Source of the DNA: Mariprofundaceae bacterium | Lineage (GTDB): Bacteria; Pseudomonadota; Zetaproteobacteria; Mariprofundales; Mariprofundaceae | Direction of reading: 5' to 3' | DNA length: 39,759 bases | NCBI GenBank assembly: GCA_027018935.1 | Contig: JALUXZ010000208.1 | Coordinates: forward strand, 1-39,759 | Shown here: positions 3,385 to 39,759 of the stretch, one piece after another | Layout: every line of letters begins with the position of its first letter | Numbering within the stretch: position 1 is the first letter of the stretch | Made by a program: the position numbers and the translations under genes | Notes under the pieces: generated by a model | Seen by the model: the letters and a program-made list of their open reading frames with translations, nothing else | What the model was told of the DNA's origin: nothing | Databases searched by the model: none

Positions 3385-3387
3385 TTA

Positions 3388-3630: not shown

Positions 3631-3723
3631 CACTTCCTCCATCAATCTAAGATGGAGCTCAGGCTAAATAAAACTATATACCCTGTTTAGTTTCACAAGG
3701 TTGTGAGATTGTACACCGTGGCA
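3631..3723 (-). promoter_or_regulatory. Largest intra-operon gap, possible internal promoter
   Basis: At 93 nt this is by far the widest gap in the cas operon. It holds a small palindrome, CACAA-GG-TTGTG at 3694-3705, and an AT-rich TATATAG stretch leftward of it that could serve as a -10 for separate expression of the zinc-ribbon gene, cas1 and cas2. The promoter elements are weak matches, so this is tentative. Confidence 0.25.
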
Positions 3724-3960: not shown

Positions 3961-3965
3961 CTGCC

Positions 3966-7975: not shown

Positions 7976-7978
7976 GAT

Positions 7979-12008: not shown

Positions 12009-12029
12009 TCTCCCTCCTAGGTTTACAGC

Positions 12030-15726: not shown

Positions 15727-15883
15727 GGACCGAAAAACCTCGGTACTTCGCCAAACTTGTGCTTTTCACCCCTATCTGCGCTGAATAAAATGGGCAATAG
15801 TGATGCTATTACTCATTTTATTGCGTCTTGCTATGAGCAAAAATCAACATCGCTTGGCTCGCACGAGGTTTTTCGAGGTGCCC
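15727..15883. mobile_element. 161-bp family MITE, degenerate copy
   Basis: This copy matches the elements at 27949-28109 and 28608-28768 over its whole length, in the orientation of the latter. The left terminal repeat has lost a few bases (GGACCGAAAAACCTCG); the right one is intact (CGAGGTTTTTCGAGGTGCCC). It is non-coding. Confidence 0.75.
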
Positions 15884-20677: not shown

Positions 20678-23600
20678 TTATGGCAAAAAGTTTGCCATAA
20701 TTGTATAGAAATTAGCTTGGAAATTAGCTTTTGTAACATTCATTCTAGCATCGAATGCTTGAGTGAATGTAGATCCAGCCGCCATATCTGTTAATACAAG
20801 TTTTAGGTCCGCAGTTGTATTACCTGCTCCAATCGGTCCGGGTGTGGTCAAATAATTAATCGCAGTACCAAAAACATCATAGTAGCCTTGGTCTGTATCA
20901 AATGGATGACCATTGTTTAAAACTGTGTTAAAGCTCGTTGTAGGCGAACTATTAAAAACACCTACTGAAATAGGGTTTATTATTGCTGGATATCCAGTAG
21001 GGACTGTTTGATTTTTCCATGCCGTTAATCCTGCATTTGTCGTCTTAATAGTTTGTCCAGAAATAAATGTTGCCATTCCTTCAGAAAACCACCTATCTAG
21101 TAATGATACTTGCCCCTGATTTAGGATGTCTTGAAAGGTGTGTACGAATTCATGCTTCACCAGTCGATAGTAATCAATAACTGTTGACCCATTAGAGGTG
21201 CTTTGTGTAAAGCCTTCAAGTTGCATGCCCGTTTTTGATCCTGCACCACCTAATATCTGATTTGTACACATTACGTGAAGCTTATTATTTGTGCTAATAC
21301 CCATTTGGGCAGCTGTTACACCAAACTTAACAAGTAAATTTGATAAAGAGTGCTCATAAGCCCAAATCAAAGTCTCCATGTCAAGAGTGCTGCACCCCTG
21401 AGTTGCTGTTGTAAAGTATGTAGCGTTAGCACTGTTATAACCAGTCGCGTTTATAGTCCCTGTCCAGCCAAACTGTGGTCCTACATAAGTAATCGCGGCA
21501 ACAGATACTGGAGTGGATGGAGTGCTAGTCACGGTTGCTTTTGTTGTAGTTCCTGCAGGGTTGATAGCTATAGGTTGGCGTAGCCCATTATTTAAAGCAG
21601 CCCAGTTGGTTGGATTAATAAGTGAGTTAAGACTAAATGTAGGGTCGCCCACCCAGCCTGCAAATATAATGCCGCGTTCTGGAAACATATCTTTACTGTA
21701 TCCTTGAACTAGGGCAACCAAATTTGCATATGCTGGATCAACAGGAGGTTCTACTGCCAGCATCGCAAGAACAGCCGCATAATCTTCTTCTGCGGCTGTT
21801 CCAACAGATCCAGCTAAATCAGCAGGAATTGTTAATCTAATATCCGTTGTTGCTGCTGCAAAAGATTCTTTTACCGCTGTAAATGCATCAGTGATAGCCT
21901 GTGCAGTCCCCCCATTTAATAAAGCACCATATGTAGCAATTTCTGTTAGAGGCGTGATTGCTACAGGTTGAGTCGGAACTGTAGCCAGTATGGTTCTATA
22001 TATAGCTCCCGTTGGCATAGATACTGTTCCACCAGTATATTCATCTTTATATGTAGCGCTACCATTTGTTGTTAACTCAAAGAGTATTGCTCCTGTATAA
22101 GCTCCAATATCAATTTGAAATGCGCCAAAAGTATCAGTAGCTGCTGGAAGACCTAACTGGGCACTCTTCACTCCATTCACAACAGAATATGCTGTAACCG
22201 TCCCTCCTAATACCAGTCCAAGATGAGCTACTCCTGAAGTAACCGTTACTACGGCTGAGGTAATAACAACAGTACGGGATACTTGAGTCGCAGGGTTTCC
22301 CGCAGCATCGGATACATTATATGTAACAGTAAAAGTACCAGCTACCGTTGGATTAGCGATAGGGTTCACAGTTGTGATTGAAGCAGTTAAATTACCATCA
22401 CGATTATCTAATGCTGTAGCTCCAGCATCTGTATATGTACCGCCTGCAGTAATATTTACTGTTGATGCACCATTTAAAGTAATCACGGGGGGCGTTATGT
22501 CGGCTGTATTTACTACAGCAACAGTTCGCGTTACTTGCGCTGCAACATTTCCTGCTGCATCAGTATAGTTATACACAACTGGGTAGTTGCCCAATATTGT
22601 CGTCGTAACCGTCCCAGCTCCTACTAGATTTACATTACCATCTACAGCATCTGCTGCAACTGCGCCTGGATCAGTAAATATGCCATTTAAGAATACAGTT
22701 AGATTTGGATTATTCAGCGTAATCACTGGTGCTGTGGTATCCGATACAACCACATTTTGAATGGTCGTTACTGCTTGTCCATTTGCATCTGTTGCTGTCC
22801 AAGTCACTGCAGTCGTTCCCAATGGAAATGTTGTAGGTGCATTGTTTGTTACTGTTACAGCAAACAAGTCTGTTGCTGTTGGAGGTGTTAATGTAACTGT
22901 GGTTTGCGCGCCTGTAGCTTCTGCAAGAATATTCGCCAATGGCGTACCAGCAAATACTGGTGCTGTGGTATCCGATACAACTACATTTTGAGCAGTCGTT
23001 GCTACTTGTCCATTTGCATCCGTTGCTGTCCAAGTTACAGCAGTCGTTCCCAATGGAAATGTTGCAGGTGCATTGTTTGTTACTGTTACAGCAAACAAGT
23101 CTGTTGCTGTTGGAGGTGTTAATGTAACTGTGGTTTGTACACCTATAGCTTCTGCAGGAATATTCGCCAATGGCGTACCAGCAAATACTGGTGCTGTGGT
23201 ATCAACGACATTTACAGTGCGTGTCAATATCGCTGTATTACCTGCGGCATCTGTGGCTGAATAGCTTACTACATAAGTTCCAACTACGTTTGTATTTACT
23301 AATGCACTATTTACTATTGCAACCAAACCAGTACTTATATTATCACTAACTGTAGATCCCTGCTCTACGTAAGTAGAACCTGCTTCAATAACTTGCGGGT
23401 TTGCACCCGTCAATACAATTACAGGAGCTAAAGTATCCGCTAAGGAAGTGGCGACATTGATTCCTGCTATTGCATTGTTCAAAGCTGTTGTAAATGCAGC
23501 ATTGGCATTAGTAAGGTTAGTCTTTAATGACGTGATTTTAGTTGTGTTAGGTATGATGTTTGGAACTAGTGCTGCAACACTGGCTTGTAAAGCTCCTAAT

Positions 23601-24574
23601 GCAGCATTTGCTCCACCCGTTAAATTATTAGACACATTAATAGCTGTGTTGGTTTGAGTGATGAAAGCACTATTTACTACAACTTGTGCAATATCAGCAT
23701 TAGAACCTGTTACTGTTGGTTGTGCTTTGAGTACCGCAGCATTAAGTGCCGTAGTAAAACTAGCTCCGCCGACGGCTACCCCATTGATAGGCGTAATTGT
23801 TAAATTATTACTCATCACTTCTACCGATACTATCGCCTGCTTTAATAAAGCTAGAGCTGCTGTTTTTGTTGCGGTAGGTGAAACTGTTACGCCTGCAATA
23901 GCACTACCATCAATAGCACCTGTAGTTAAATCATTCGCCAAGTCGGCAAGGACACTATTAATATTACTTCCTGCTGCAGTTGCTGTTCGGCGAATCATTT
24001 CAGCCACAGCCTCATTGGCTTTCAAAACTTGTGCTATATTAGAGGCATCAACAGGTGTCGATACTGGATTAAGATTTGTTGGTAAACCAAAGCCGATAGA
24101 GTTCATAACATTATTGGTCGCAGTCACAAGGTTTGCGGAATTAAGCTTACCTCCACCTAAAGCTTTCGCTGTTGCAACTGCCATGGTTGAAAGAGGTGTG
24201 ACCGTACCTATTACGCTACCATTACTTGGTAATGATGTAATAGCATTGGTAAGAGGAAAGTCAGGCGTTCCGTTTGTAATCGAATCAATACCACCTGAAA
24301 CCGTAACAATTAAAGGCAATGCTGTTCCTGAAGGTACGGAGAATGTAAATTTTGCCTGTGAATCAGTGACAGGGTTTGCTGGTGCTGTACTGACCAATAC
24401 TCCATTGGCATCATGTACAGTTACATTCCCGCCTACAATAGGTCCCTTCAATGCACTTCCTAAAATACTTGTTGAAGCTCCAGTTGTAGATGCCGCTGTA
24501 GAACCGCCTCCACCTCCACAAGAAGATAATAAGGTCACCAACGGCAACAGTAAGCATACGATTAATCTATTCAT
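20678..24574 (-). CDS. Large surface lipoprotein: HYR/Ig repeats plus C-terminal gluzincin metalloprotease
   Basis: The 1298-aa product starts MNRLIVCLLLPLVTLLSSCG: a type II signal peptide with lipobox LSSC, then a Gly/Ser linker. The N-terminal third is Ala/Thr/Asn-rich and helical. A DUF5011-like Ig domain (DTLAPVIVLTGANPQVIEAG) follows, then two nearly identical HYR domains (VFAGTPLANI...), and two more Ig-type domains (APVITLN, PPVITLNG). The C-terminal part carries H1141-EFVH with a second glutamate at E1165 (WFSEGMATF), the HExxH + E pattern of MA-clan peptidases. I chose the ATG at 24574 because AGGAAGGG precedes it. The role is probably at the cell surface, in adhesion or matrix processing; the substrate is unknown. 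Confidence 0.82.
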   Translation of the reverse strand: MNRLIVCLLLPLVTLLSSCGGGGGSTAASTTGASTSILGSALKGPIVGGNVTVHDANGVLVSTAPANPVTDSQAKFTFSVPSGTALPLIVTVSGGIDSITNGTPDFPLTNAITSLPSNGSVIGTVTPLSTMAVATAKALGGGKLNSANLVTATNNVMNSIGFGLPTNLNPVSTPVDASNIAQVLKANEAVAEMIRRTATAAGSNINSVLADLANDLTTGAIDGSAIAGVTVSPTATKTAALALLKQAIVSVEVMSNNLTITPINGVAVGGASFTTALNAAVLKAQPTVTGSNADIAQVVVNSAFITQTNTAINVSNNLTGGANAALGALQASVAALVPNIIPNTTKITSLKTNLTNANAAFTTALNNAIAGINVATSLADTLAPVIVLTGANPQVIEAGSTYVEQGSTVSDNISTGLVAIVNSALVNTNVVGTYVVSYSATDAAGNTAILTRTVNVVDTTAPVFAGTPLANIPAEAIGVQTTVTLTPPTATDLFAVTVTNNAPATFPLGTTAVTWTATDANGQVATTAQNVVVSDTTAPVFAGTPLANILAEATGAQTTVTLTPPTATDLFAVTVTNNAPTTFPLGTTAVTWTATDANGQAVTTIQNVVVSDTTAPVITLNNPNLTVFLNGIFTDPGAVAADAVDGNVNLVGAGTVTTTILGNYPVVYNYTDAAGNVAAQVTRTVAVVNTADITPPVITLNGASTVNITAGGTYTDAGATALDNRDGNLTASITTVNPIANPTVAGTFTVTYNVSDAAGNPATQVSRTVVITSAVVTVTSGVAHLGLVLGGTVTAYSVVNGVKSAQLGLPAATDTFGAFQIDIGAYTGAILFELTTNGSATYKDEYTGGTVSMPTGAIYRTILATVPTQPVAITPLTEIATYGALLNGGTAQAITDAFTAVKESFAAATTDIRLTIPADLAGSVGTAAEEDYAAVLAMLAVEPPVDPAYANLVALVQGYSKDMFPERGIIFAGWVGDPTFSLNSLINPTNWAALNNGLRQPIAINPAGTTTKATVTSTPSTPVSVAAITYVGPQFGWTGTINATGYNSANATYFTTATQGCSTLDMETLIWAYEHSLSNLLVKFGVTAAQMGISTNNKLHVMCTNQILGGAGSKTGMQLEGFTQSTSNGSTVIDYYRLVKHEFVHTFQDILNQGQVSLLDRWFSEGMATFISGQTIKTTNAGLTAWKNQTVPTGYPAIINPISVGVFNSSPTTSFNTVLNNGHPFDTDQGYYDVFGTAINYLTTPGPIGAGNTTADLKLVLTDMAAGSTFTQAFDARMNVTKANFQANFYTIMANFLP
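22725..23186 (-). repeat. Two tandem 231-bp units encoding HYR domains
   Basis: Unit 1 spans 22725-22955 and unit 2 22956-23186, each 77 codons, nearly identical at the DNA level. A third partial start (ACTGGTGCTGTGGTAT) follows at 23187. In-frame units of this kind can expand or contract by recombination. Confidence 0.85.
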
Positions 24575-24904
24575 TAAACCCTTCCTCATCATTAAAGGTT
24601 CGCAATGGTATGTACCTTGCGGGGGGGGCAAGGAGTTTGTTGTTAATTCTCAGTTTTTCATTTATTCACCAGCCATATTAGTGGATTAAACTGCTCTATT
24701 TCCCCTTGGAGGAGGTTTTGTGGCTTAGTAAAAGTATAAAAATCGAAAAACCTTCCATCGCCTTGTCTGCCAGAGACTCCATATTTATTCTCAATCAAGC
24801 GGTGTTAGTCGTAACCTTTTGTGCATATTCATAATCACTAGAACTTCATTATTCCTGAAATTCTGTAACCAACGCTGTTAAGTTTCTTAAAGCAAAAAAA
24901 TCCT
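24575..24904. promoter_or_regulatory. Divergent promoter region with G8 tract in a hairpin
   Basis: This 330-bp region between the lipoprotein gene and phoH has no gene. A run of eight G (24621-24628), flanked by CCTTGC and GCAAGG, forms a small hairpin 47 nt upstream of the lipoprotein start codon, in its likely promoter or 5' leader. Homopolymer runs of this length can slip. Confidence 0.5.
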
Positions 24905-27763: not shown

Positions 27764-27948
27764 TAAAGAAAAGCCTTGTAGAATTCATATTTTAAAGAAA
27801 TAACTGAAATTAATTTCAATAAACATCAATTTTATCAGCATGATACGAGTGAATATTTCGTCGGACAGTAGTATCTCGTTATATTCAAAAATGTAAAGGC
27901 TCCACGGTCTGCTTTGCTGAATCCTGTAATTGCACCAATATAAGTGTA
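27764..27948. other. AT-rich gap, no gene seen
   Basis: This stretch between two mobile elements has no credible reading frame, RNA gene or terminator that I can recognise. Confidence 0.35.
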
Positions 27949-28109
27949 GGGCACCTCGAAAAACCTCGCACGAGTTAAACGACGTTGATTTTCGCTCATA
28001 GCAAGGCGCAATAAAATGAGTCATAGCATCGTTATTGTCCATTTTATTCAACGCAGCTAGGGGTGAAAAGCACAAGTTTGGCGAAGTACCGAGGTTTTTC
28101 GAGGTGCCC
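27949..28109. mobile_element. 161-bp MITE with perfect 20-bp terminal inverted repeats
   Basis: The termini GGGCACCTCGAAAAACCTCG and its exact complement bound a 161-bp non-coding interior. The flanks are TGTA on both sides, a likely 4-bp target duplication. Interior arms AATAAAATG / CATTTTATT add further symmetry. This is the best-preserved copy. Confidence 0.9.
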
Positions 28110-28383
28110 TGTAGTAGCGCAATGATTGCTAGAATCATTCAAGCATGATCAGGGTTGCCTGAAAAGTTCTAAACAAGTCATGAACTCGTGCATTTTTTCG
28201 AGGCCCTTAAAAAAAATAGCTTTGAAATAAAAAACAACATACATGGACTTCTCAAGGAATTGTTTCAATTTTCTTCATACCCTTTAGAATTGAGCATTCT
28301 ATGAACACAAGCCTGTAGTTTTATTTTTCCACCATCATGGATATTTTAAAAATATATAGTATCAGAGTCCCTTTGTAGTACAT
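28110..28383. other. tRNA upstream region, no gene seen
   Basis: AT-rich sequence before tRNA-Arg; it should contain the tRNA promoter but no clear pair of boxes stands out. No coding signal is visible. Confidence 0.35.
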
Positions 28384-28460
28384 GCACCCTTAGCTCAGCT
28401 GGATAGAGCGTCGGCCTCCGAAGCCGAAGGCCAGTGGTTCGAATCCACTAGGGTGCACCA
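28384..28460 (+). tRNA. tRNA-Arg (anticodon CCG)
   Basis: A 77-nt cloverleaf: acceptor GCACCCT / AGGGTGC, D stem GCTC / GAGC, anticodon stem TCGGC / GCCGA with loop CTCCGAA (anticodon CCG, reads CGG), T stem AGTGG / CCACT with TTCGAAT, and an encoded CCA end. No integrase or attachment-site duplication is seen next to it. Confidence 0.97.
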
Positions 28461-28607
28461 TTTTTATCTTTAGGCTTTTAGGCACAATAACTAAATTCAT
28501 ATCTGTGCTGGAATTGTGTCCACTCTGTACCTATAAAAAAATGAGATGTGTTTTTTCAAGTTATAGAATGACCATTAGGCGATTTTAAAGCTCCAGAGTT
28601 ATCTATA
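28461..28607. other. Gap after the tRNA, no gene seen
   Basis: Short AT-rich stretch between the tRNA and the next 161-bp element; no feature recognised. Confidence 0.35.
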
Positions 28608-28768
28608 GGGCACCTCGAAAAAACTCGAAACTTCGCCAAACTTGTGCTTTTCACCCCTAGCTGCGTTGAGTAAAATGGGCAATAGCGATGCTATGACTCA
28701 TTTCATTGCGCCTTGCCATGAGTGAAAATCAGCATCGTTTGACTCGTGCGAGGTTTTTCGAGGTGCCC
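28608..28768. mobile_element. 161-bp MITE, second full copy, inverted
   Basis: Same length and interior as 27949-28109 but in the opposite orientation. The right terminal repeat is perfect and the left has one change (AAAAAACTCG). It is flanked by TATA on both sides, a 4-bp duplication. It lies 148 nt after tRNA-Arg. Confidence 0.9.
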
Positions 28769-28999
28769 TATATTAGGTACGATTCATTAGTTCAATGATT
28801 ATAAAATTACGCGAATTCAACTCTCAAGTGCAACTCTACCTGAATTCTATGGTGAGTTTATTCACCGTCTCTACAACTACAACCTATCATGAATTGAACT
28901 GCCGCTCATCATTCCTTTGAAAACAGGATTACCCTTCAATCCAGAAGGACACCCTTCTAACCCTTTTCCATGCCACGAGCTTCATAACAAAAATGTTCA
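28769..28999. other. Gap beyond the surface-protein gene, no gene seen
   Basis: Non-coding as far as I can tell; a terminator for the leftward unit would be expected here but none is obvious. Confidence 0.35.
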
Positions 29000-30256
29000 T
29001 TATTTTGGAATATCGAAATGTATTATCCTGAACGATTGCCAACGGGAAATGGTCAATTCCGAACCACTAGAATCCAAACTGGTGATTCGCCACTTTAGTT
29101 CTTTATCACTATGTTCTCTTAACCATGGTGGAGCCTGATAATAACCAACTCCACCCTTAATCACAGCTGACAGAACTACTTCATTTTCAGCCATAACATC
29201 AAGTTTTTCAAATGATGCTGAACTTAATGCAACCCAAGTAAAATTAATTTCCTTACTTGCTTCGACAGTCTTATCGGGCAACAAAAGTTCGGGGGAATTC
29301 TTTCCAGATGCTGCATTTTTCGATTCACCCACATAATACCTCAACATAGGCATGGGAAAACCTGCCGCGCCACCTGAAGCAACAGTACCTGTAACCGCAT
29401 TGGAATTACTCTCTTTATCCACTGTAGCTTCAACTCTAAATAGCAACTTATAATAGCCATCTGCCTGATGTGGTATTTTATCAACATCTGGACCTGGTAC
29501 AGTGACTTCACCCGTAGGAGGCAAGAATAAATCAAATCGATCCAATACTGTATAGCGTTTCTGCAGAGCTCTTTTTTCAATGGGAAGCGATGCCTCAGGT
29601 AATAAATCAAAAATAGTTGGTTCCTCGTCCCCTGGCGATACAACCTCCCACCTTCCTGTTAATCGTCCTGTACCAGTATAACGAACTTTTGCTACAACTT
29701 CAGGAGGCACCGAACCCTTTGGAATACTTACCACTGGACTATCAGACATAAATTTCATTTTTACATCTACCAATGAGAATGGAACCCGTGCACCACCTCC
29801 AGCCATGCGGCAAGTTACCACAGCATACGCTGTTGGATTGGAAAAATGGCGCACATAAAAAAACCTAGAGTCCTTACCTTGCTGTGCATCTTGATAAGCA
29901 CGGCGTGTTACCGAAGCAGGAATCGACATAATATCTGTAAAATTACTGTTCCCTGCCGTACCACTTGCTCTACCGATATTATTTCTCAAAGGTAAACGCC
30001 CAAACACTGTTCCTGCAACACATGGATCAACCACACCCACTGCCGTAGTCGTTACTGCACCACACCAAAAAGCCTCTACCGCATTTTGCCCCGCTGATAA
30101 GCCCTGAAATGTAAGGAAAACTGTACTGGGACTAGAGTGGCTGACATTCACGCCACTGGGATTCACCCCAGTAACAGCAGCTGCAAACTGTGTTCCAAGC
30201 ATCACATGAATCATTGCCATCAGGCTTAATATCACATATTTCATAAATCCTCTCAT
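29000..30256 (-). CDS. Exported protein of unknown function
   Basis: The 418-aa product starts MRGFMKYVILSLMAMIHVML and has a signal peptide likely cut after FAAA. The mature part is beta-rich: VTGVNPSGVNVSHSSPSTVF resembles a short Ig-like fold, FFYVRHFSNPTAYAVVTCRM carries a conserved-looking Cys, and NFTWVALSSASFEKLDVMAE looks like a second beta sandwich. I recognise no family. The ATG at 30256 follows AAGGGGTGGTG; the ATG at 30244 with GAGAGGA is also possible. It begins 14 nt after the barrel gene and is surely co-transcribed, so it may be a ligand, plug or cargo of that barrel. Confidence 0.75.
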   Translation of the reverse strand: MRGFMKYVILSLMAMIHVMLGTQFAAAVTGVNPSGVNVSHSSPSTVFLTFQGLSAGQNAVEAFWCGAVTTTAVGVVDPCVAGTVFGRLPLRNNIGRASGTAGNSNFTDIMSIPASVTRRAYQDAQQGKDSRFFYVRHFSNPTAYAVVTCRMAGGGARVPFSLVDVKMKFMSDSPVVSIPKGSVPPEVVAKVRYTGTGRLTGRWEVVSPGDEEPTIFDLLPEASLPIEKRALQKRYTVLDRFDLFLPPTGEVTVPGPDVDKIPHQADGYYKLLFRVEATVDKESNSNAVTGTVASGGAAGFPMPMLRYYVGESKNAASGKNSPELLLPDKTVEASKEINFTWVALSSASFEKLDVMAENEVVLSAVIKGGVGYYQAPPWLREHSDKELKWRITSLDSSGSELTISRWQSFRIIHFDIPK

Positions 30257-30270
30257 AATAACACCACCCC

Positions 30271-32367
30271 TTAAAATACGCTCAAGCTTATACCAGCAAG
30301 AATTTTCCAATCGCTAACATTTGAATTAAATCCAAAGACATTATCAACGGTTTCATTCATCTGTCGGTCATAACGTAAATATGCCTGCACTGGAATATAT
30401 TCTCCCCCAAAACTGGGCATACGGTATTGCCATGAAATTTGTGCATTCCCTGACAAACTCTGCGAAGTAGAGTTCTGTTGAGAATCAGAAATTCGATTCA
30501 AATCAATATTGCCGTTGACTGTCCAGTCATCTAAAAGTATCCAGTTAAGCCCAATGTTTCGGTGAAGCGTATAAGTGGTAATCGCCTGCTCCTGATCCAC
30601 CCCTTCATTGCGACTGAATCCAGCGTTAATAGACAAACCATCAAACATCTGAATTTGCGCATTGATTCCATGTAGAGTATTTATAAAATCAGCCAGTTCA
30701 CGCCCTAGTTGCCGATTATCCTGTCTAGACTGATTGTAATTGTATCCTAAGCTCCATTTCTCACTATTCCAATTGCTGGATAATCCAATTGCCGTGGTCA
30801 ACTGGTCGGGAAGATGACCCAATGAAAATCCCGATAATGGGTCTAAATCTGGGCGGTTACCTGCAAACTGATGAATATGACTATAATTTACATTCACAGA
30901 TGGCAGCAATGCAGCCAATACGCCTTCAGGGTTATTAGGTGCAAGCATATTCTTCAATGCAAGTGATGCATTAACTTGTGAGTTTTGTGTCTTGGTCGTC
31001 AAAATTGTGGCTAAATTTTCAAGGTTATCACGCCGTTCTTCAGTGGATGCTGTTAACGTTAAATCTCCCAACGTTCCAGTCAGGCTAAACATTCCACGTT
31101 CAAGGTCCGCTTGTGGAAATGAACCTATCGTCTTGAACAGAGGATCAATGCGCTCGAATTCATACGATAACGACAATGATAATGGTTTCCCAGACTCCAT
31201 ATTACCCTGATATGCATTATACATTAAGCGACCAAAATATGCCCTATCCGTAGTCTTATTTACGGCAACAACACCAAAACCTTGATCCAATGCCTGATCA
31301 TTTGGGTTCGTAAAGGTACTCTCCGCTACCTCTGTTTCAAGGCTAAACATGGATTCTGGTGTGCTCGTCAATACACGCACAGCCATCGCACGATTCTTTT
31401 CCGCATCAGTAATAGCTCCAACGTTGAACCCCAAGTCCGAGCGTCTAGAGGCATCCGAAAAATAACCCTCGACTTTCAGGGCTCCAGGTCTTTCAAACAA
31501 TTCAATACCACCACTGATGCCATAGGTGGTGTTATTGGACTTATTCAGCCCCAGAAAATCATCAAAACCGACAATAGCCGTTGAGTTCTGGGCTGTACCA
31601 GTTAGGGAAACCCTATCTGTAAACTGATATGAGGCAGTTATGCCTCGATTGGCAGCATTGGACATCACATACCGACTTCCCTGATACTGATAGTGTCCAA
31701 TGTATAGGCTACCACGACCCTTATTCAAAGAAATTAAATAATCACTTAAATCTACCTTTGGTGCATGCACACCCTTTTGCGCAAACCTTAGTGCTTCTTC
31801 ACGATAACTTGAACCAATCAAGTTAGCTCGAGCCTGTACAGATAAGTCATCACGTGCCGCATCAAGATTGATACCTCCCTGCCCTGTTAAATCATTGAAA
31901 GTACTTCGAGGCGGAGCTCCAGCATCCACCGAATGCCCTTCTCCAAGCTGGGATTTTACGGTTAAATTTAATTGTGGTGTAATTTCAAAACGATCAAAAC
32001 CTGACACCTTACGCACTCGGATTTGAACAGCACCTACTTCAGACCATTCATTATCATGAATAGAATATAACTTTATCGAACTTTCACCATATGGAAGATC
32101 AACAATGCTCGGCTGGAACACCAACTCATTTCCTGATCGTTTGAATAGTGCTGTGAGGTCTGCATTGCCGACAAATACGCGAATATCATCTGTTACAGTC
32201 ACGTTATTTAACTCAATGCTAACTTTCGCATCTTTATCCACCCATTGTCCAGCCATAATATTTGAACCTGTCACCTCTACAGCCTGCGAGAAGGCAGGCC
32301 ATCCCAGTAAAGCACCAAGCATGTAGATATAAATAAATGACATTGAAGAAAAGTGCCCACGTTGCAT
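30271..32367 (-). CDS. Outer-membrane beta-barrel protein with N-terminal Ig-like domain
   Basis: The 698-aa protein has a signal peptide (MSFIYIYMLGALLGWPAFSQA). A small beta domain follows (VEVTGSNIMAGQWVDKDAKV to VGAVQIRVRKV), then a long series of alternating amphipathic strands (YLISLNKGRGSLYIGHYQYQ, LSLSLSYEFERIDPLF, WSLGYNYNQSR). It ends in LAGISLSVF with the C-terminal Phe of outer-membrane barrels. I chose the ATG at 32367, which follows GGGAGGG. No TonB box or plug domain is recognisable, so it is not a clear TonB-dependent receptor. It heads the second transcription unit behind the shared palindrome. Confidence 0.82.
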   Translation of the reverse strand: MQRGHFSSMSFIYIYMLGALLGWPAFSQAVEVTGSNIMAGQWVDKDAKVSIELNNVTVTDDIRVFVGNADLTALFKRSGNELVFQPSIVDLPYGESSIKLYSIHDNEWSEVGAVQIRVRKVSGFDRFEITPQLNLTVKSQLGEGHSVDAGAPPRSTFNDLTGQGGINLDAARDDLSVQARANLIGSSYREEALRFAQKGVHAPKVDLSDYLISLNKGRGSLYIGHYQYQGSRYVMSNAANRGITASYQFTDRVSLTGTAQNSTAIVGFDDFLGLNKSNNTTYGISGGIELFERPGALKVEGYFSDASRRSDLGFNVGAITDAEKNRAMAVRVLTSTPESMFSLETEVAESTFTNPNDQALDQGFGVVAVNKTTDRAYFGRLMYNAYQGNMESGKPLSLSLSYEFERIDPLFKTIGSFPQADLERGMFSLTGTLGDLTLTASTEERRDNLENLATILTTKTQNSQVNASLALKNMLAPNNPEGVLAALLPSVNVNYSHIHQFAGNRPDLDPLSGFSLGHLPDQLTTAIGLSSNWNSEKWSLGYNYNQSRQDNRQLGRELADFINTLHGINAQIQMFDGLSINAGFSRNEGVDQEQAITTYTLHRNIGLNWILLDDWTVNGNIDLNRISDSQQNSTSQSLSGNAQISWQYRMPSFGGEYIPVQAYLRYDRQMNETVDNVFGFNSNVSDWKILAGISLSVF

Positions 32368-32445
32368 TTTTTCCCTCCCAGATACCACCATACACATAAG
32401 TCACAGATGATGAGGCGGGTAATATCGTGAAAAGTGAAATAATTT

Positions 32446-32469
32446 CATATACCCAGAATTGGGTATATG
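32446..32469 (-). promoter_or_regulatory. Operator palindrome, site 1
   Basis: Perfect arms CATATACCCA and TGGGTATATG around GAAT, 79 nt upstream of the barrel start codon. The 17-mer CCCAGAATTGGGTATAT is identical at 39273-39289. Position and symmetry suggest a binding site for a dimeric regulator. Confidence 0.65.
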
Positions 32470-32496
32470 CAAGATTAAAACTCGTACAGGCTCTAA

Positions 32497-35400
32497 CTAT
32501 TGTACGCCAACGAGCACAAATGGTGCCCAGAAAAAGGGATGTGCCCCGGAGACATGTCGTCCTTCGATATCAACAAACGAAGCCCTTAGCTTTTCACGCG
32601 CCTGCTTTAGTGCAAAAGATGATGAATGATGATCTGCCATATCAGCAAAAAAATCCTGCATCAAATGCTCTGTGCTGTATGTTTCCACAGACCAGTGAGA
32701 AACCAGAAGCCTTCTAGCCCCTGCATACATAAACGCTCGAGTTAGTCCAGCAAAGCCTTCACCATTTTGGGCACGTTCCACATCCCCAGAAGTGTTACAA
32801 GCTGAAAGAGCCACCAATTCACTATCTATATTTAGATTCAGAACCTCACTCATGGATAACAGTCCATCTTCACCTTTGCCTAACGAGCTATCCATACTCA
32901 AGGCAAGACTGGGCTCTGCCTCAGGCAGAGAAAAATCAGCACTCAACAAGCCGTGGGTTGCAAACAGAATAAAGCGACTATCTAAAAGGTTCGTTGCATA
33001 CAAAGTAGACTCTCTGGCTCGAGAACCAAAAAACAGTTCGTGCTTCCCGCCCAGAATATCCGCAATCGCCTTGGCTTCATGCTCGGTGTTTGGTAGCCGT
33101 TTCAAGCCCATCACGTTGTTGTCAGGCTTGCGTAACAGCGATCTTAACAACGGGCGCTGTTGCACATATATTTTCTGTTCGCGCTGCGAAACACCTTCAA
33201 AAAACACAGGATTGGCAAAAGCAGTGAGATTCTTGCCATAGCGATTTTTTTTCTTCCGTGTCTTTAACACATGCAAGGAAGAAAGGCTCGGCATATAGAT
33301 GATTGGCCACGGCACATAATCCAGATCAGCATACTCCTGAAACATGATGCCGTCTCTGGATCGGGACTGCTGACGTTGCTGCTCGAAATGCTTTTTCATT
33401 GCGGGAGTAAAATCCCTAATCAGCATTTCAAATGGCAATGTGTACAACGATCCATCACCCACAATATAAAGCAGTTTATTATTTTCCAACAACGGCTCTG
33501 CTGGCTTCAAAAGTGTCTGGTATGCCTTATAAAGCAATTTAGGCTTGAGACTCTGTAGGTTCTGCAAGCCATGTTCGCCACTTACACTACGTCGAAGCTG
33601 ATGCACCATTGCCGCAATCTTTGTCCTGCCAACAGGCAAAGGAAAAAGATGGAATGATTTCTGGGTAATCACGAACAACAAAGTCTCTTTCTCAAGCAGG
33701 GCATACACCATGACAGCATCACCCTGCCGCAAATCACCCTGAATTTGTCCTACGCTCACCGCTCTAGGGGAGCGCAAGTCCATCACATGATGGAATGATG
33801 TATTCACCATACGAACAGCTAACTTATACTTTCGCCCAGCAGCCTTTACCTGTTTCACCAATACCTTATGAGACTGTATATTACTGGCATTGTGATTTAC
33901 CGATGCTGCAAGCGCATAGCGCAGATTCTGCCAATGTAATTTAGCCTCGGACTCCCGTGCTAGAGCTTTTTGTAAATCTGGGTTACGCATGGCGTGCAAT
34001 GCATTTGTTTTTAGCATCAATTCAGAAAAGATGCGAGACTGATTTCGCGAGGCTACCTGTAAAAGTTGTTTGTCATATCCAGCATCTGGACTGGCTCGAT
34101 GCAGCTTTAGCAATAGCTCCATCATACCCTGATAAATCCAGCTATATTTGCCCATCATGCCGGATCGTTCCTCCTCAGTCAGACCATCACTATCAGCAAA
34201 TAACGCCTCCACAGCATCCATCGCCAGTTCGAAATATTCCACAGCTTGTTTATCACGCTGGTAATCAGCATATAGGCTTGCGAGATTGGCATATACCACA
34301 GCCTGCCGATCCGAGCGGGCAAAATGCCGGAGCGCATTGGCTGCCAACTCCAAATGCTCGATAGCTAGATCTTTCTTGCCCATATCCGTATAGACACGGG
34401 CAATATTATTGTGGGTTGCCGCTGTTTGTGGATGTAAATCCCCCAGCAATGGGCGCTGAATCGATAAGGCGCGCTGCATAGCAAGAACAGCCTCTCCATG
34501 TTTTCCCTGTTCATATCGCACACTGCCCAATGCATTCCAAACTGTCGCCAATTTCGGATGTTGCGTCCCAAGCAAGGATTCCAATCGATGGATAGTATCT
34601 TTATAAGCTCGTGCAGCAACATCCATCTCACCTTCAAGTTGATGAATATACCCCAGTTTTTGAATCAACCATGCAGCTTCAATTTCATGCTGCTGATCCT
34701 TCTGAATATCCAGTGCCTTTTTATAATTGTTTGCCGCAGTCGTATAATCATTGGTTTTAACCATCAAATCACCGAGCGCAGTGTATGCATTAGCAACTTC
34801 GACATGATGAGAGCCGAATTGCTTGATAGCATAGCCAAGCGATGATTCAGCTAGACTTTTCGCCTCCTTCAACACTCCTCTTTTCTGCAACAACTGTGAC
34901 AGATTATTCATGCTCGAAAGTGTAAAAGGATGTGATACACCTAGCCTTGAAGTACGAATCTTTAATGCTGTACGCAATAGCTTTTCTGCCTGATTATCAT
35001 CGCCTTGATTCAGAAGAAGCAGTGCAAAGTTATTCATACTGGTTGCCAGATCTGGGTGCTGCATACCCAGCTTCTCTTGCCGTACATGAATGGATTTCTG
35101 ATACCACAGTGCTGCTTCTTTTGACTGCCCCACTGCCATAAAGGCTGCGGCAATATTATTATAGGCTTCCGCTAATTCTGGGTATTGTGCTGATAGAGAA
35201 GATTCCCCCTGCTCAATAGCTTTGGACTCCAATTTTATCACATCTTGGAAGCGTCCCATTCGATAGAACCAGATTGCCTTATCATTTTTCAATATTAATG
35301 ATTGCAGTGGCTTCGCATGGTATTCCTGTAGATAGCGGAATGCATTGCCAAACCATGTCCATGCTTCAAGGTTATGTCCCAAGTAAGCATGGAGTATGGC

Positions 35401-35835
35401 AACCATACCAGCAAAGCGTGCCCGATACTCATTTCCAACTGTACCGAGTTTACGCATAATCTCCACCGCTCGAATAGCATGCTCAAGACCTTCTTTATAG
35501 TGCCCCTCCCTACGATAAATAGATGCCATACGGTATTCAATCCGTGCCAGAAAAACAGGTTTATTCATAGTTGTTTTATCTTGCTTTAGGAGCCGTATAT
35601 ATTTATCTGCACGTTGATAATATCCCATCAATTCATAGGCATGAATGGATTCCAATTGAGTGTCCGAAGAGATTTCTGACCAGCGAACATCATTGGCATA
35701 GGCAAATGCCCGTTGATAGTTTCCTGAATCAATAGCTCGCTGAATATTTGTGGATGCCAACACTTCATCAGCACAAACCACCATGCTATAGAAACCACTA
35801 TAAAGAAATCCAAATAAGATGAGATAAAACTTCAT
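32497..35835 (-). CDS. Secreted TPR-CHAT cysteine protease
   Basis: The 1112-aa protein starts with a signal peptide (MKFYLILFGFLYSGFYSMVV, cut near CA-DE). A long array of TPR repeats follows (about residues 30-560: LAEAYNNIAAAFMAVGQSKE, LATSMNNFALLLLNQGDDNQ, VANAYTALGDLMVKTNDYTT and others). A C-terminal CHAT domain (about 800-1112) completes it. The caspase-like dyad is visible: H961 in FATHGLLSADF and C1013 in LVALSACNTSG. CHAT proteases cut partner proteins when TPR contacts signal a trigger. Here the export signal places it in the periplasm or at the surface. It is the last gene of the cyclase-FecR-CHAT unit, 9 nt after the FecR-like gene. Confidence 0.92.
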   Translation of the reverse strand: MKFYLILFGFLYSGFYSMVVCADEVLASTNIQRAIDSGNYQRAFAYANDVRWSEISSDTQLESIHAYELMGYYQRADKYIRLLKQDKTTMNKPVFLARIEYRMASIYRREGHYKEGLEHAIRAVEIMRKLGTVGNEYRARFAGMVAILHAYLGHNLEAWTWFGNAFRYLQEYHAKPLQSLILKNDKAIWFYRMGRFQDVIKLESKAIEQGESSLSAQYPELAEAYNNIAAAFMAVGQSKEAALWYQKSIHVRQEKLGMQHPDLATSMNNFALLLLNQGDDNQAEKLLRTALKIRTSRLGVSHPFTLSSMNNLSQLLQKRGVLKEAKSLAESSLGYAIKQFGSHHVEVANAYTALGDLMVKTNDYTTAANNYKKALDIQKDQQHEIEAAWLIQKLGYIHQLEGEMDVAARAYKDTIHRLESLLGTQHPKLATVWNALGSVRYEQGKHGEAVLAMQRALSIQRPLLGDLHPQTAATHNNIARVYTDMGKKDLAIEHLELAANALRHFARSDRQAVVYANLASLYADYQRDKQAVEYFELAMDAVEALFADSDGLTEEERSGMMGKYSWIYQGMMELLLKLHRASPDAGYDKQLLQVASRNQSRIFSELMLKTNALHAMRNPDLQKALARESEAKLHWQNLRYALAASVNHNASNIQSHKVLVKQVKAAGRKYKLAVRMVNTSFHHVMDLRSPRAVSVGQIQGDLRQGDAVMVYALLEKETLLFVITQKSFHLFPLPVGRTKIAAMVHQLRRSVSGEHGLQNLQSLKPKLLYKAYQTLLKPAEPLLENNKLLYIVGDGSLYTLPFEMLIRDFTPAMKKHFEQQRQQSRSRDGIMFQEYADLDYVPWPIIYMPSLSSLHVLKTRKKKNRYGKNLTAFANPVFFEGVSQREQKIYVQQRPLLRSLLRKPDNNVMGLKRLPNTEHEAKAIADILGGKHELFFGSRARESTLYATNLLDSRFILFATHGLLSADFSLPEAEPSLALSMDSSLGKGEDGLLSMSEVLNLNIDSELVALSACNTSGDVERAQNGEGFAGLTRAFMYAGARRLLVSHWSVETYSTEHLMQDFFADMADHHSSSFALKQAREKLRASFVDIEGRHVSGAHPFFWAPFVLVGVQ

Positions 35836-35844
35836 ATTATGATA

Positions 35845-36699
35845 TTAATTTAGCAAGGTTGCTTTCAAAGCAGGGCTGTTTGGTCGTTCCTTCGCTAATT
35901 TCAACCATAAATGGTGCGCATCATCCCCAAAACCATTTTGTTGCAGCCATGCCGCATACAAAAGTCGTTGCGAAAAGCCCGCATGCGCCTTTGGCTGTAT
36001 ATTGTTTTTTTGTGCTACCAGCGATGCTGTAGCAAGCTCGAAGTCTCCCCAGTCAGCAAAGACTTGCCCGTTTCCCATCCGTCCCTCCACACTCCATGAG
36101 TAGACAGTACCCGTCTTTAAGTGCACCGAAGCAGGTAAGGTGAAACGCTCCCCATTCAACACCTTCACAAGCAGCATATTCCCATCTTCATCGACCAGTT
36201 CAAAACGAACTCGATCTTTTTTTTGATGCAACTTCCATAAAAATGTAGGTCGCTTATCGGCTGTTTTCCCCCCTCTCAAATTCAATAGGCTGATGGGCTT
36301 GTTTTTTTGCGCCGACCGCATCACCAAACCAGATTGTGCCACCTCGGCAGGGTTGATTCTAGCATGATGCAGGAGTGTTATTTTTTTCATTTTAGGCTTG
36401 TGCCCAGACACATGTTGAATCGAATCTTTCAGAATATGCACCACAGATGGTCCCTGAATTTGGAACACCTTATGGTTATCCCAATATATCAGCGTCACAC
36501 TGGCATGCTTTTCAATTTCCAACTGGTCACCAGCAAAAAGTTCCGAAAATATATCCACCTGTTGAGCCTGTTTATTCACAATATTTCGGCTGATACCATT
36601 CATATCAGTAATCATGGCAACAGCATATTCCTCGGCTACCGCCAAAGACGGACACAGCAAAAAAAATAGTACAATCAGTTTCGATATTCTGTTCATCAT
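35845..36699 (-). CDS. FecR-like periplasmic protein
   Basis: The 284-aa product starts with a signal peptide (MNRISKLIVLFFLLCPSLAV). A FecR-like beta domain follows (SELFAGDQLEIEKHASVTLI, YWDNHKVFQIQGPSVVHI; the G-D..a...l.y.d......gps pattern). After it comes a beta segment (RPTFLWKLHQKKDRVRFELV, a FecR-associated Ig-like fold) and a short C-terminal helical part (RLLYAAWLQQNGFGDDAHHL). FecR domains sense or transmit envelope signals. Two adjacent ATGs (36699, 36696) follow AGGAGA; the second has the better spacing. No membrane helix for sigma-factor control is present, so it is not a classical FecR. Confidence 0.8.
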   Translation of the reverse strand: MMNRISKLIVLFFLLCPSLAVAEEYAVAMITDMNGISRNIVNKQAQQVDIFSELFAGDQLEIEKHASVTLIYWDNHKVFQIQGPSVVHILKDSIQHVSGHKPKMKKITLLHHARINPAEVAQSGLVMRSAQKNKPISLLNLRGGKTADKRPTFLWKLHQKKDRVRFELVDEDGNMLLVKVLNGERFTLPASVHLKTGTVYSWSVEGRMGNGQVFADWGDFELATASLVAQKNNIQPKAHAGFSQRLLYAAWLQQNGFGDDAHHLWLKLAKERPNSPALKATLLN

Positions 36700-36723
36700 T
36701 CTTCTCCTAAATTAAAAATATTT

Positions 36724-38502
36724 TCAAGTATGCGAAGTATTATAACTATACAAGGATAAGGCAGATCGCCCGCGAATTGCCATCTCGCCCAATTCAATCC
36801 ACTGAGCCTTACCGAATTGATTGTTAATTTCCTGATAAACATCCTGTGAAAAAAGCAATGGTATGTTGATGCTTTTGGTAAGTTCTTCGATACGAGCCGC
36901 TGTATTTACAGTATCGCCAATGGCTGTGTATTCACTGCGCTTTTGACTACCCAACTTCCCCACCACGACCTCTCCGACATGCAACCCGATACCGATTTTA
37001 AGTGGTTCTTCGCCTTCCGACTCAAGCTCTTTATTGAGTTTCTGCAAACGCTCCAACATATCGAGTGCAGCACAAAATGCATGCAAAGAAGGATGATCAA
37101 GGCGATTAGGCGCACCGAAAAAAGCCATAATTCCGTCACCCATAAACTTGTCCAATGTTCCATTATGTTCGTGAATAGCTGTTGTCATCTGCTCGAAATA
37201 ACGGTTCAGAAGCAGCACAACCTGCTCAGGCTGCATCTTCTCGCTACGCGTGGTAAAGGAACGAATATCCGCAAACAGCACACACACCCTACAGCGTTCG
37301 CCCTCTGGAAGCTTATCGGCAAGAATTTGTGTCATCACCTGTGGACTCACCATACCGCCGAAAGCCATGCGTAAATGCCTCTTCTCTATCGCATCAAGCA
37401 ATAATTGCTGTACCTGCCTCCCCATCAGAGCCACGACAGAGGTCAACATCAGCGCAACCACCTGCAAATCATATCCTGATGTCAGCAGAGTCATCGAAAT
37501 AGCTGCTAAACCCACCACCAAAGATGTCGCCAATAGCATGGGAACAATGCGCGACAACGGCAGCCACCATAACAATGTAAGCAGCAATGCGCAGCACACC
37601 ACCCACACCATAGCAACTGGCTTAATCATACCCCGATGCTGCAAGCTCCTGAGTGCTTGCAAATGCAACAAGACTCCGGGGGCAAAGCGCTTGTTATCTT
37701 CCCACGCTGCCAAATTGATAACCTGCAAATGCCGATCCACAAAAGGCAACACAGAGCCTATCAATACAGCCTTGCCAGCGAATGCAGCTTTCAATTTGTC
37801 CAGTTGACCAGTCGTGCCCCATGCAATCACCTGCTGCATCGGAATATATTGAACCGCCGCACCGCTCGTATAATCAATCAACCCCTCACTGACAGGCATT
37901 TTTACCGCTCTGGCCATCTCACCAACCAATGTCGGCACAGTCTCATTCTGCACACCCAAATGTTCAGTAAACCGCCGCACCACCTGATCACGGTCTTTTT
38001 TCCACAACACATAGCCAGTTGCATGCTTTTTCGCAGCCAGCAACAGTGGAGGATAAACACCGCGCGTTTCACCATCAGCATTCACCGTGATACCAACCAC
38101 CAATGGCGCAGCATCACTTAATCGTTTTAGCCCCTGCATCAAGGCTTTATCCAAACCTCGATCAAGAAAACTGTACGAACGATCTGGCAAGGTAACATCC
38201 AGCCCCACAACCAAGGGCTTACCCATGCCAAGTGCAATAAATAAATCACGAAAATGCCTATGCCACAAGGCAATCGGTTCGGGGAAAGTCGCCGTTGTCT
38301 TATCATCAATACCAATCAACACCACATTGCCTGTATCAGATGCGCTGCTGCTTTTGTGCAACAGACTGAACTCATGATCCAGTAGTTTATTTTCCAATGT
38401 CGAAGTAAAAGGAGAAACCAGCAAGCCCAGCGATACCAACAGCACCAGAGCATAACCCACCAGCATATATTTCTGCCGCATCATTGGACTACCGCCAACC
38501 AT
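36724..38502 (-). CDS. CHASE2-domain class III adenylate cyclase
   Basis: The 592-aa protein has an N-terminal helix (residues about 13-31, LVGYALVLLVSLGLLVSPF). A periplasmic CHASE2 sensor follows (about 35-290, VVLIGIDDKTTATFPEPIAL, VVGLDVTLPDRS). Three membrane helices come next (MVWVVCCALLLTLLWWLPLS, MLLATSLVVGLAAISMTLL, LQVVALMLTSVVALMG). The C-terminal cyclase domain has metal Asp residues D412 (FADIRSFTTRSE) and D456 (MGDGIMAFFGAP), substrate Lys in LDKF, and EYTAIGDTVNTAARIE, whose Thr points to ATP (class IIIb). It should make cAMP in response to an envelope signal. The start at 38502 is weakly supported; ATG 38484 is an alternative. Confidence 0.93.
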   Translation of the reverse strand: MVGGSPMMRQKYMLVGYALVLLVSLGLLVSPFTSTLENKLLDHEFSLLHKSSSASDTGNVVLIGIDDKTTATFPEPIALWHRHFRDLFIALGMGKPLVVGLDVTLPDRSYSFLDRGLDKALMQGLKRLSDAAPLVVGITVNADGETRGVYPPLLLAAKKHATGYVLWKKDRDQVVRRFTEHLGVQNETVPTLVGEMARAVKMPVSEGLIDYTSGAAVQYIPMQQVIAWGTTGQLDKLKAAFAGKAVLIGSVLPFVDRHLQVINLAAWEDNKRFAPGVLLHLQALRSLQHRGMIKPVAMVWVVCCALLLTLLWWLPLSRIVPMLLATSLVVGLAAISMTLLTSGYDLQVVALMLTSVVALMGRQVQQLLLDAIEKRHLRMAFGGMVSPQVMTQILADKLPEGERCRVCVLFADIRSFTTRSEKMQPEQVVLLLNRYFEQMTTAIHEHNGTLDKFMGDGIMAFFGAPNRLDHPSLHAFCAALDMLERLQKLNKELESEGEEPLKIGIGLHVGEVVVGKLGSQKRSEYTAIGDTVNTAARIEELTKSINIPLLFSQDVYQEINNQFGKAQWIELGEMAIRGRSALSLYSYNTSHT

Positions 38503-38531
38503 GATTCAAAAACATCCTATCTCCAAAACTG

Positions 38532-38550
38532 GATAGAGAGAGAGAGATAG
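38532..38550 (-). repeat. GA-repeat mirror sequence before the cyclase gene
   Basis: GATAGAGAGAGAGAGATAG reads the same backwards on one strand (mirror repeat). On the message it lies about 30 nt upstream of the cyclase start codon. Its CTATC can pair with GATAG next to the weak ribosome binding site. It is a short repeat that may slip. Confidence 0.45.
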
Positions 38551-38565
38551 AAATCAGAATGAACA

Positions 38566-39195
38566 CTAATGAAATTTATGTATTGTTGGCGTTGTTTGTC
38601 GACGCATCATTGTTGGCGCAACAAATGGCTTAGACCAAATGACTTCAACCTTTTTTTGTTGCGCTCCAGCATGCGCAAAGTGTACATTGATATATTGTTT
38701 GTAATTTATTCTCTGTCTACAGCTTGAAGATGCTTTTAATTTAAAATTCCAGCGCAGAGGAGCTCCAATTCTCCAAATTAAATCTTTACCTGATACCGAA
38801 TTATTATATTTATCATAAACCTTAAAGCAGGAAGGGACTGAAATGCTAAGATGTTGAGCATCACACTCAAGCCTCCGCTCTATTTCAACCTTAAGCAGCG
38901 CTTCTTCACCTGCTTTAAAACGATGCTTTCCAATACTTACGTCTTTAAGTGCCGTGATGACATCGCTTGAAAAATGATCACACCACAAAGGTCGGCCTGC
39001 GTTTATATTGGTATGTTGATTCCTATTCTTAAATAACGTCATTTTTTCCTTAGTGACAGATTTAGCCTGAGTGTTTGCATTCCAAGAACTATTTCCAGCT
39101 GTTGATCCAGCATATACAATATTAGAAAAAATAAAGGTTGGGGCAAATAAACATAAGCCCATTAAAAATAGTATTTTATAATATATCTGAGTCAT
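38566..39195 (-). CDS. Small secreted protein of unknown function
   Basis: The 209-aa product has a signal peptide (ILFLMGLCLFAPTFIFSNIV, cut near YAG) and a mature part with five Cys residues (LWCDHF, LECDAQ, SVPSCFKVYD, SSCRQR and one in the signal), suggesting disulfides. The central part looks beta-rich (KAGEEALLKVEIERRLECDA, LRWNFKLKAS). I recognise no family. AGGAGA precedes the ATG. It is the first gene of the cyclase-FecR-CHAT unit, behind the palindrome and a 5' hairpin, so it may be the sensor, substrate or secreted signal of that system. Confidence 0.75.
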   Translation of the reverse strand: MTQIYYKILFLMGLCLFAPTFIFSNIVYAGSTAGNSSWNANTQAKSVTKEKMTLFKNRNQHTNINAGRPLWCDHFSSDVITALKDVSIGKHRFKAGEEALLKVEIERRLECDAQHLSISVPSCFKVYDKYNNSVSGKDLIWRIGAPLRWNFKLKASSSCRQRINYKQYINVHFAHAGAQQKKVEVIWSKPFVAPTMMRRQTTPTIHKFH

Positions 39196-39268: not shown

Positions 39269-39288
39269 TATCCCCAGAATTGGGTATA
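39269..39288 (-). promoter_or_regulatory. Operator palindrome, site 2
   Basis: TATCCCCA-GAAT-TGGGTATA is the same palindrome as at 32446-32469 with one mismatch in the left arm, 74 nt upstream of the first gene of the unit. The distance to the start codon is nearly the same as at site 1. Confidence 0.65.
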
Positions 39289-39551: not shown

Positions 39552-39614
39552 CTAGCAATCTACTTGTTTCCTCTGCGCCTCTATGGTAAAAAATAACTTT
39601 CTAAGGAAACTCTA

Positions 39615-39759
39615 GGGCACCTCGAAAAACCTCGGACGAGTCAAACGACGTTGATTTTCGCTCATAGCAAGGCGCAATAAAATGAGTCATAGCATCGTTA
39701 TTGTCCATTTTATTCAACGCAGCTAGGGGTGAAAAGCACAAGTTTGGCGAAGTACCGAG
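39615..39759. mobile_element. 161-bp family MITE, cut by the window end
   Basis: It begins GGGCACCTCGAAAAACCTCG and matches 27949-28109 closely up to the last base of the window; the right terminal repeat lies outside. Confidence 0.85.

What the first reader, a model, noticed from the sequence alone, without database searches (positions are those of the whole stretch)
28999..39195. CHASE2 cyclase - FecR - secreted TPR-CHAT protease - barrel cluster
An envelope sensor making cAMP, a FecR-like periplasmic protein, an exported caspase-like protease with intact H961/C1013, an outer-membrane barrel and two unknown exported proteins are co-regulated. Known TPR-CHAT proteases mostly act in the cytoplasm (separase-like, Csx29-type), so an exported one with a sensor and barrel suggests protease-controlled surface release or processing. 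The two unknown exported proteins are candidate substrates.
Basis: partly seen in the sequence, partly recalled or inferred. Interest (0 to 1): 0.6.

Follow-up and report, generated by a model that had tools for sequence, protein, structure and literature searches.

The report
Exported protease-cyclase trio with shared operator
A bacterium carries a recurring set of three envelope genes (a cAMP-making sensor, a periplasmic scaffold and an exported caspase-like protease) next to an outer-membrane gene pair, and one rare DNA switch sequence, probably read by a two-component regulator elsewhere in the genome, ties the two sets together.

Summary
The six genes are present as described, with H961/C1013 intact. 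The cluster is two separable units. Unit A (CHASE2-adenylate cyclase, periplasmic protein, exported TPR-CHAT protease) recurs in Betaproteobacteria and Desulfobacterales and, with a different CHAT lineage, in a family-mate (G164). Unit B (barrel + 418-aa protein) is found only here and in G187, which shows no trio; this speaks against the barrel or 418-aa protein being obligate protease partners or substrates. The "FecR-like" protein matches no FecR model; it resembles DUF928 and MtxA, which sits beside a CHASE2-cyclase in magnetotactic bacteria. Exported TPR-CHAT proteins are common, not unusual. New here: a 16-bp palindrome, TACCCAA-TT-CTGGGTA (NarL 7-2-7 geometry), lies about 75-80 nt upstream of both units. 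Elsewhere in the genome it directly follows a NarL-type regulator-kinase pair, and it is almost absent from the 78 genomes of the order searched. Most likely a NarL-type two-component system switches on a small exported-protein regulon, within which the trio converts an envelope (proteolytic) event into cAMP. The trio and the shared operator are well supported; that this regulator binds it, and the direction of signalling, are inferred.

The parts
38566..39195 (-). 209-aa exported protein (p209), first gene of unit A; no homologue found
   Evidence: ORF; no Pfam/NCBIfam match; N-terminal hydrophobic segment
36724..38502 (-). CHASE2 sensor + class III adenylate cyclase (592 aa), all six canonical catalytic residues present
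   Evidence: PF05226 1e-21, PF00211 2e-25; D412 K452 D456 D530 N533 R537 and transmembrane segments
35845..36699 (-).
   Evidence: DUF928 sub-threshold 4e-5; homologues next to CHASE2 in L060, L061, L068, L077, L100, L126 and G164; profile hits MtxA 4Z29 at 0.005
32497..35835 (-). Exported TPR-CHAT protease (1112 aa), H961/C1013
   Evidence: PF12770 1.2e-44; dyad invariant; clade with betaproteobacterial CHAT-CHASE2 loci, support 100/99
30271..32397 (-). Predicted outer-membrane beta-barrel (708 aa), first gene of unit B; probable true start at 32367
   Evidence: 60% identical orthologue in G187; strand alternation z=3.2; start with Shine-Dalgarno GGGAGG
29000..30310 (-). 418-436-aa exported protein (q418), second gene of unit B
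   Evidence: 70% identical orthologue directly after the barrel in G187
32448..32467 (-). Operator TATACCCAATTCTGGGTATA upstream of the barrel gene (NarL-like 7-2-7)
   Evidence: conserved upstream of the G187 barrel; none expected from shuffles
39269..39288 (-). Operator TATACCCAATTCTGGGGATA upstream of p209 / unit A
27947..28114 (.). MITE-like 168-bp repeat, left flank (further copies at 28603-28770 inverted, 39613-39759 and 15731-15883)
28384..28460 (+). tRNA-Arg(CCG) between the conserved backbone and the cluster
   Evidence: same tRNA near the HDOD gene in genus-mate G002

Best explanation
The cluster is an acquired island of two transcription units that share one operator. Unit A (p209, CHASE2-adenylate cyclase, periplasmic DUF928/MtxA-like protein, exported TPR-CHAT protease) is an envelope-to-cAMP signalling module: the exported protease and the periplasmic scaffold handle an envelope event, the CHASE2 domain reads the result, and the cytoplasmic cyclase makes cAMP. 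Unit B (barrel + 418-aa exported protein) is a separate outer-membrane pair expressed under the same conditions. A NarL/FixJ-type two-component system on another contig (C174) binds the 7-2-7 palindrome upstream of both units and of further exported proteins. Shown: gene content, the recurring trio, the separability of the units, and the operator with its position and rarity. Inferred: that this regulator binds the operator (about 0.7), that the CHAT protein is an active periplasmic protease, and that signalling runs protease/scaffold to CHASE2 to cAMP (about 0.4).
For: Trio: CHASE2-scaffold-CHAT in the same order in Desulfobacterales L077; CHAT-CHASE2-scaffold in Betaproteobacteria L060, L061 and L068; CHAT and CHASE2 in L059 and L067; scaffold-CHASE2 beside CHAT in L100 and L126; CHAT-CHASE2-ShlB in L123. 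In the CHAT tree the window sits in a seven-row clade (100/99) that includes five betaproteobacterial CHASE2-linked rows; the label is more clustered than in all 500 shuffles. Family-mate G164 has CHAT-CHASE2-scaffold with a different CHAT lineage. Operator: copies of the 20-mer with at most one mismatch only in G000, G187, G278 and G045 of 78 order genomes; a copy follows the kinase gene directly in G000, G187 and G278; 73-92 nt upstream of the start in 7 of 9 sites. The regulator is Response_reg + GerE, its partner HisKA_3/HATPase. E. coli NarL binds TACCCCTAAAGGGGTA as a 7-2-7 dimer site (PMC4549865). C174 belongs to the same genome by shared MITEs and tetranucleotide profile, r=0.95.
Against: No binding or expression data. 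The choice of regulator rests on adjacency and site geometry; the genome holds three further, more distant kinases of this type. The MtxA paper mentions CHASE2 next to MtxA but no CHAT gene (PMC4439547), so the protease may be an optional client rather than the input. Of 80 CHAT loci only about a tenth have CHASE2 within 10 kb, though many contigs are short. Protease activity is inferred from two residues.
Confidence: 0.5

Rival explanations
1. Protease-controlled surface release: the CHAT protease processes the barrel or the 209-/418-aa proteins at the surface.
For: All are exported and the two units share an operator in this genome; in Burkholderiaceae L123 a ShlB/FhaC two-partner barrel adjoins CHAT and CHASE2, so coupling to an outer-membrane export barrel can occur.
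Against: Barrel and q418 persist in G187, where no trio gene was found, and are absent from G164; no barrel or q418 homologue was seen in the other trio loci; p209 has no homologue.
Confidence: 0.15
2. The cyclase acts first and the trio is inside-out: CHASE2 senses a ligand, cAMP controls a CRP-type regulator, and the protease is a downstream effector that merely shares the operon.
For: CHASE2-cyclase is a complete sensor by itself, and CHASE2/MtxA pairs exist in magnetotactic bacteria.
Against: Repeated association with exported TPR-CHAT of two different lineages suggests a direct link.
Confidence: 0.25
3. A defence or self/non-self system like Pycsar or Csx29 (cyclase plus protease effector).
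For: PADLOC Pycsar cyclase models match the cyclase domain (2e-32) and TPR models match the CHAT protein.
Against: The Pycsar match covers only the generic class III cyclase domain; no known Pycsar effector and no Cas7-11 in the cluster; the proteins are exported or membrane-anchored with a periplasmic sensor, and the operator links them to outer-membrane and secreted proteins.
Confidence: 0.05
4. Chance neighbours: an island of unrelated exported genes gathered next to a tRNA gene by repeat-mediated rearrangement.
For: MITE-like repeats and tRNA-Arg flank the cluster; unit B is lineage-specific and the barrel leader is homologous to that of an unrelated lipoprotein gene.
Against: The trio recurs in distant taxa and in G164, and the operator precedes both units.
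Confidence: 0.08

Closest known systems
MtxA / CHASE2-adenylate cyclase operon of magnetotactic bacteria (PMC4439547)
   Same: An exported ~310-aa protein with Ig-like (FN3) and TPR domains beside a CHASE2-cyclase gene; a profile of the window-type scaffold proteins reaches MtxA 4Z29 at E=0.005
   Different: Weak sequence match; no CHAT gene reported there; here an exported TPR-CHAT protease and a second, barrel-coding unit under a shared operator
Csx29 / Craspase TPR-CHAT protease (PMC10028731)
   Same: TPR repeats followed by a CHAT protease domain with a His-Cys dyad (H615/C658 in Csx29, H961/C1013 here)
   Different: Exported rather than cytoplasmic; no Cas7-11, Csx30 or sigma factor; nothing in the locus suggests RNA guidance
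NarL 7-2-7 operators (PMC4549865)
   Same: Inverted heptamers with 2-bp spacing beginning TACCC; adjacent NarL/FixJ response regulator gene
   Different: Heptamers TACCCAA/TACCCAG rather than TACCCCT; the regulon holds exported proteins, not nitrate respiration; binding untested
Cyanobacterial CHAT-CHASE2 neighbours (Calothrix NIES-4105 plasmid, L142)
   Same: TPR-CHAT gene followed directly by a CHASE2-containing gene
   Different: The CHASE2 protein there carries a CHAT-like stretch and no cyclase match; no scaffold gene identified

Membership tests
CHAT protease (PF12770) | CHAT domain above curated cut-off | tested here: met
   153 bits against a cut-off of 24
CHAT protease (PF12770) | His-Cys catalytic dyad | tested here: met
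   H961 and C1013 invariant in A1
CHAT protease (PF12770) | Proteolytic activity | not testable with these tools
   needs an enzyme assay
CHASE2-class III adenylate cyclase | CHASE2 and cyclase domains with two metal Asp, Lys/Asp specificity pair, Asn and Arg | tested here: met
   that K452/D530 mean ATP as substrate is inference from family knowledge
FecR | FecR model match | tested here: not met
   No FecR model at E<=0.1 for the window protein nor at 0.05 for six homologues
MtxA-like | Signal peptide, N-terminal domain, FN3/Ig domain, TPR end, CHASE2-cyclase neighbour | tested here: inconclusive
   Neighbour and export met; profile match to 4Z29 only E=0.005; single-sequence search found nothing
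DUF928 (PF06051) | Score above 26 bits | tested here: not met
   23.8 bits, 4e-5
Outer-membrane beta-barrel | Signal peptide, alternating strands, C-terminal aromatic | tested here: inconclusive
   z=3.2 against shuffles, ends in F; AlphaFold model too poor (pLDDT 32)
NarL-type regulon | GerE response regulator gene adjacent to a 7-2-7 operator | tested here: met
NarL-type regulon | Regulator binds the operator | not testable with these tools
   needs a binding assay
Craspase / type III-E | Cas7-11 and Csx30 beside TPR-CHAT | tested here: not met
   Family searches of the cluster genes show none
Pycsar | Pycsar effector beside the cyclase | tested here: not met
   Only cyclase-domain and TPR matches in the cluster

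The most novel reading that the evidence does not exclude
A widespread, undescribed envelope signalling module in which an exported caspase-like TPR-CHAT protease and an MtxA-like periplasmic scaffold control a CHASE2 adenylate cyclase, so that a proteolytic event in the periplasm is turned into cytoplasmic cAMP.
Probability: 0.35. Interest if true: 0.75.

Novelty: new variant of a known kind. Interest (0 to 1): 0.55.

Why it matters
To my knowledge neither the input of CHASE2 cyclases nor the role of the many exported TPR-CHAT proteins is established. Their recurrent pairing, including with a second CHAT lineage in the same family, makes a direct test possible: does the protease or scaffold gate the cyclase? 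The operator offers a handle on a small regulon of exported proteins in poorly studied bacteria. No paper in the library searched holds both 'CHASE2' and 'CHAT domain', which suggests, without proving, that the association is undescribed.

Tried and rejected
Defence system (PADLOC): only generic cyclase and TPR matches. Structure of barrel and q418: two-sequence alignments gave pLDDT 32 and 41, so no fold search was run. Plasmid records as a source of close neighbourhoods: CHAT relatives only about 23-29% identical, no barrel match; one Calothrix CHAT-CHASE2 pair. Contamination as the source of the cluster or of C174: made unlikely by synteny with genus-mates, tetranucleotide correlation and shared repeats. 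Sigma-54 or CRP reading of the palindrome: by eye no -24/-12 element and no TGTGA-N6-TCACA; the 7-2-7 geometry fits NarL. The one-mismatch site of G000 on C266 is inside a gene and treated as chance. Literature searches for CHAT with CHASE2, FecR or DUF928 returned nothing; a broad search gave nothing that was used.

Full report
Observation. The six genes lie on the - strand between 29000 and 39195 with short gaps or an overlap. Pfam confirms a CHASE2 domain followed by a class III cyclase, and TPR repeats followed by a CHAT domain. The cyclase keeps D412, K452, D456, D530, N533 and R537, so it should be an active adenylate cyclase (inference from family knowledge). H961 and C1013 of the CHAT domain are invariant in seven aligned proteins. 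The protein called FecR-like matches no FecR model. It shows DUF928 just below the cut-off, and a profile of its relatives reaches the solved structure of MtxA, 4Z29, at E=0.005. MtxA is an exported protein with an Ig-like and a TPR domain whose gene is followed by a CHASE2-cyclase gene in magnetotactic bacteria (PMC4439547). I therefore call it DUF928/MtxA-like; the homology is suggestive, not proven.

Origin. The contig is genuine: most genes from 13.5 to 27.6 kb are syntenic and 75-98% identical with genus-mates. The cluster itself was not found in ten genus-mates. It begins after a tRNA-Arg gene that in G002 borders other genes, and is flanked by copies of a 168-bp MITE-like repeat and of a second repeat family. 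It is best seen as an acquired island.

Neighbourhood survey. A scan of one genome per species with a CHAT alignment returned the 80 best loci. Homologues of the CHASE2-cyclase and of the scaffold lie next to CHAT in Betaproteobacteria (L060, L061, L068; L059 and L067 with CHASE2 only; L100 divergent), Desulfobacterales (L077, same order as the window) and Syntrophobacter (L126); in Burkholderiaceae (L123) CHAT and CHASE2 are followed by a ShlB/FhaC barrel. In a tree of 78 CHAT domains the window joins five betaproteobacterial CHASE2-linked sequences and one unlinked one with support 100/99, and the CHASE2-neighbour label needs six changes against a mean of 11.4 in shuffles. Within the window's own order of 78 genomes, only G164 has a full-length CHASE2-cyclase homologue (41%) together with a scaffold homologue (28%); they are adjacent, and the gene before them encodes an exported TPR-CHAT protein of a different CHAT lineage. 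Pairing with two different CHAT lineages argues for a functional link.

Two units. The barrel and the 418-aa protein occur together in G187 (60% and 70% identical), the only other genome of 78 with the latter. G187 showed no CHAT match, no scaffold and only weaker, cyclase-level similarity to the CHASE2 protein. Its contig ends just upstream of the barrel, so absence is likely rather than certain (95% complete). Together with G164 this shows that the two units are separable, and weakens the idea that the barrel or the 418-aa protein are obligate partners or substrates of the protease.

Operator. A perfect 20-bp palindrome, TATACCCAATTCTGGGTATA, lies upstream of the barrel and a one-mismatch copy upstream of p209; shuffled windows give none. 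The same palindrome precedes the G187 barrel. Genome-wide in G000 there is one more perfect copy and one weaker copy on contig C174, in front of two exported-protein genes (221 aa, and 606 aa with CxxCH motifs); the perfect copy directly follows a NarL-type response regulator and kinase pair. In G187 and G278 a copy also directly follows the homologous kinase gene. Across 78 order genomes, copies with at most one mismatch occur only in G000, G187, G278 and G045. The site is 73-92 nt upstream of the start codon in seven of nine cases, and the barrel leader is homologous (z=12-13) to that of an unrelated beta-propeller lipoprotein gene in G278 and G045, as if a promoter cassette had been moved between surface-protein genes. 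TACCCAA-TT-CTGGGTA has the 7-2-7 geometry bound by E. coli NarL, for which TACCCCTAAAGGGGTA is an engineered site (PMC4549865). C174 belongs to the same genome by repeats and composition. That the C174 regulator binds these sites is inference.

Export. A crude signal-peptide test is met by 48 of 77 CHAT relatives with an apparent start, against 101 of 603 other ORFs; several further members show such a segment at an internal start.

Mechanism. I propose that the two-component system switches on both units; that the exported protease and the scaffold act in the periplasm; and that the CHASE2 domain reads their state and sets cAMP. The first step is supported by sequence, the rest is inference. 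Rivals are an effector role for the protease downstream of, or beside, cAMP signalling, and processing of surface proteins.

Limits.

Noticed in passing
window 2096-13136: By eye, Cas2- and Cas1-like genes followed by what look like Cmr-type (type III-B) CRISPR genes, with repeated sequence at about 650-2000. Not checked by a family search.
   Followed up: no
window 20678-24631: A 1317-aa lipoprotein-like surface protein with HYR and bacterial Ig-like domains sits between genes that are adjacent in genus-mates G009 (L148), G006 (L149) and G002 (L150): a second genome-specific insertion.
   Followed up: partly
window 27947-28114 and 28603-28770: Two MITE-like copies in inverted orientation flank the tRNA-Arg gene; in G002 the tRNA has the opposite orientation relative to the HDOD gene, with a 41-bp partial duplicate, compatible with inversion between the repeats.
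   Followed up: partly
L180 3458-3477, L193 30-49: The same operator and a homologous leader precede a beta-propeller (lactonase-type) lipoprotein gene in G278 and G045: the promoter cassette seems to be reused for different surface proteins.
   Followed up: yes
L157 2864-4684: A 606-aa exported protein with two CxxCH motifs under the same operator; a possible surface cytochrome.
   Followed up: partly
L142 10222-11799 (Calothrix plasmid): A protein joining a CHAT-like stretch and a CHASE2 domain directly follows a TPR-CHAT gene.
   Followed up: no
L123 7663-10623: A mechanosensitive-channel protein with a ligand-binding-receptor-like domain follows CHAT-CHASE2-ShlB in a Burkholderiaceae bin.
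   Followed up: no
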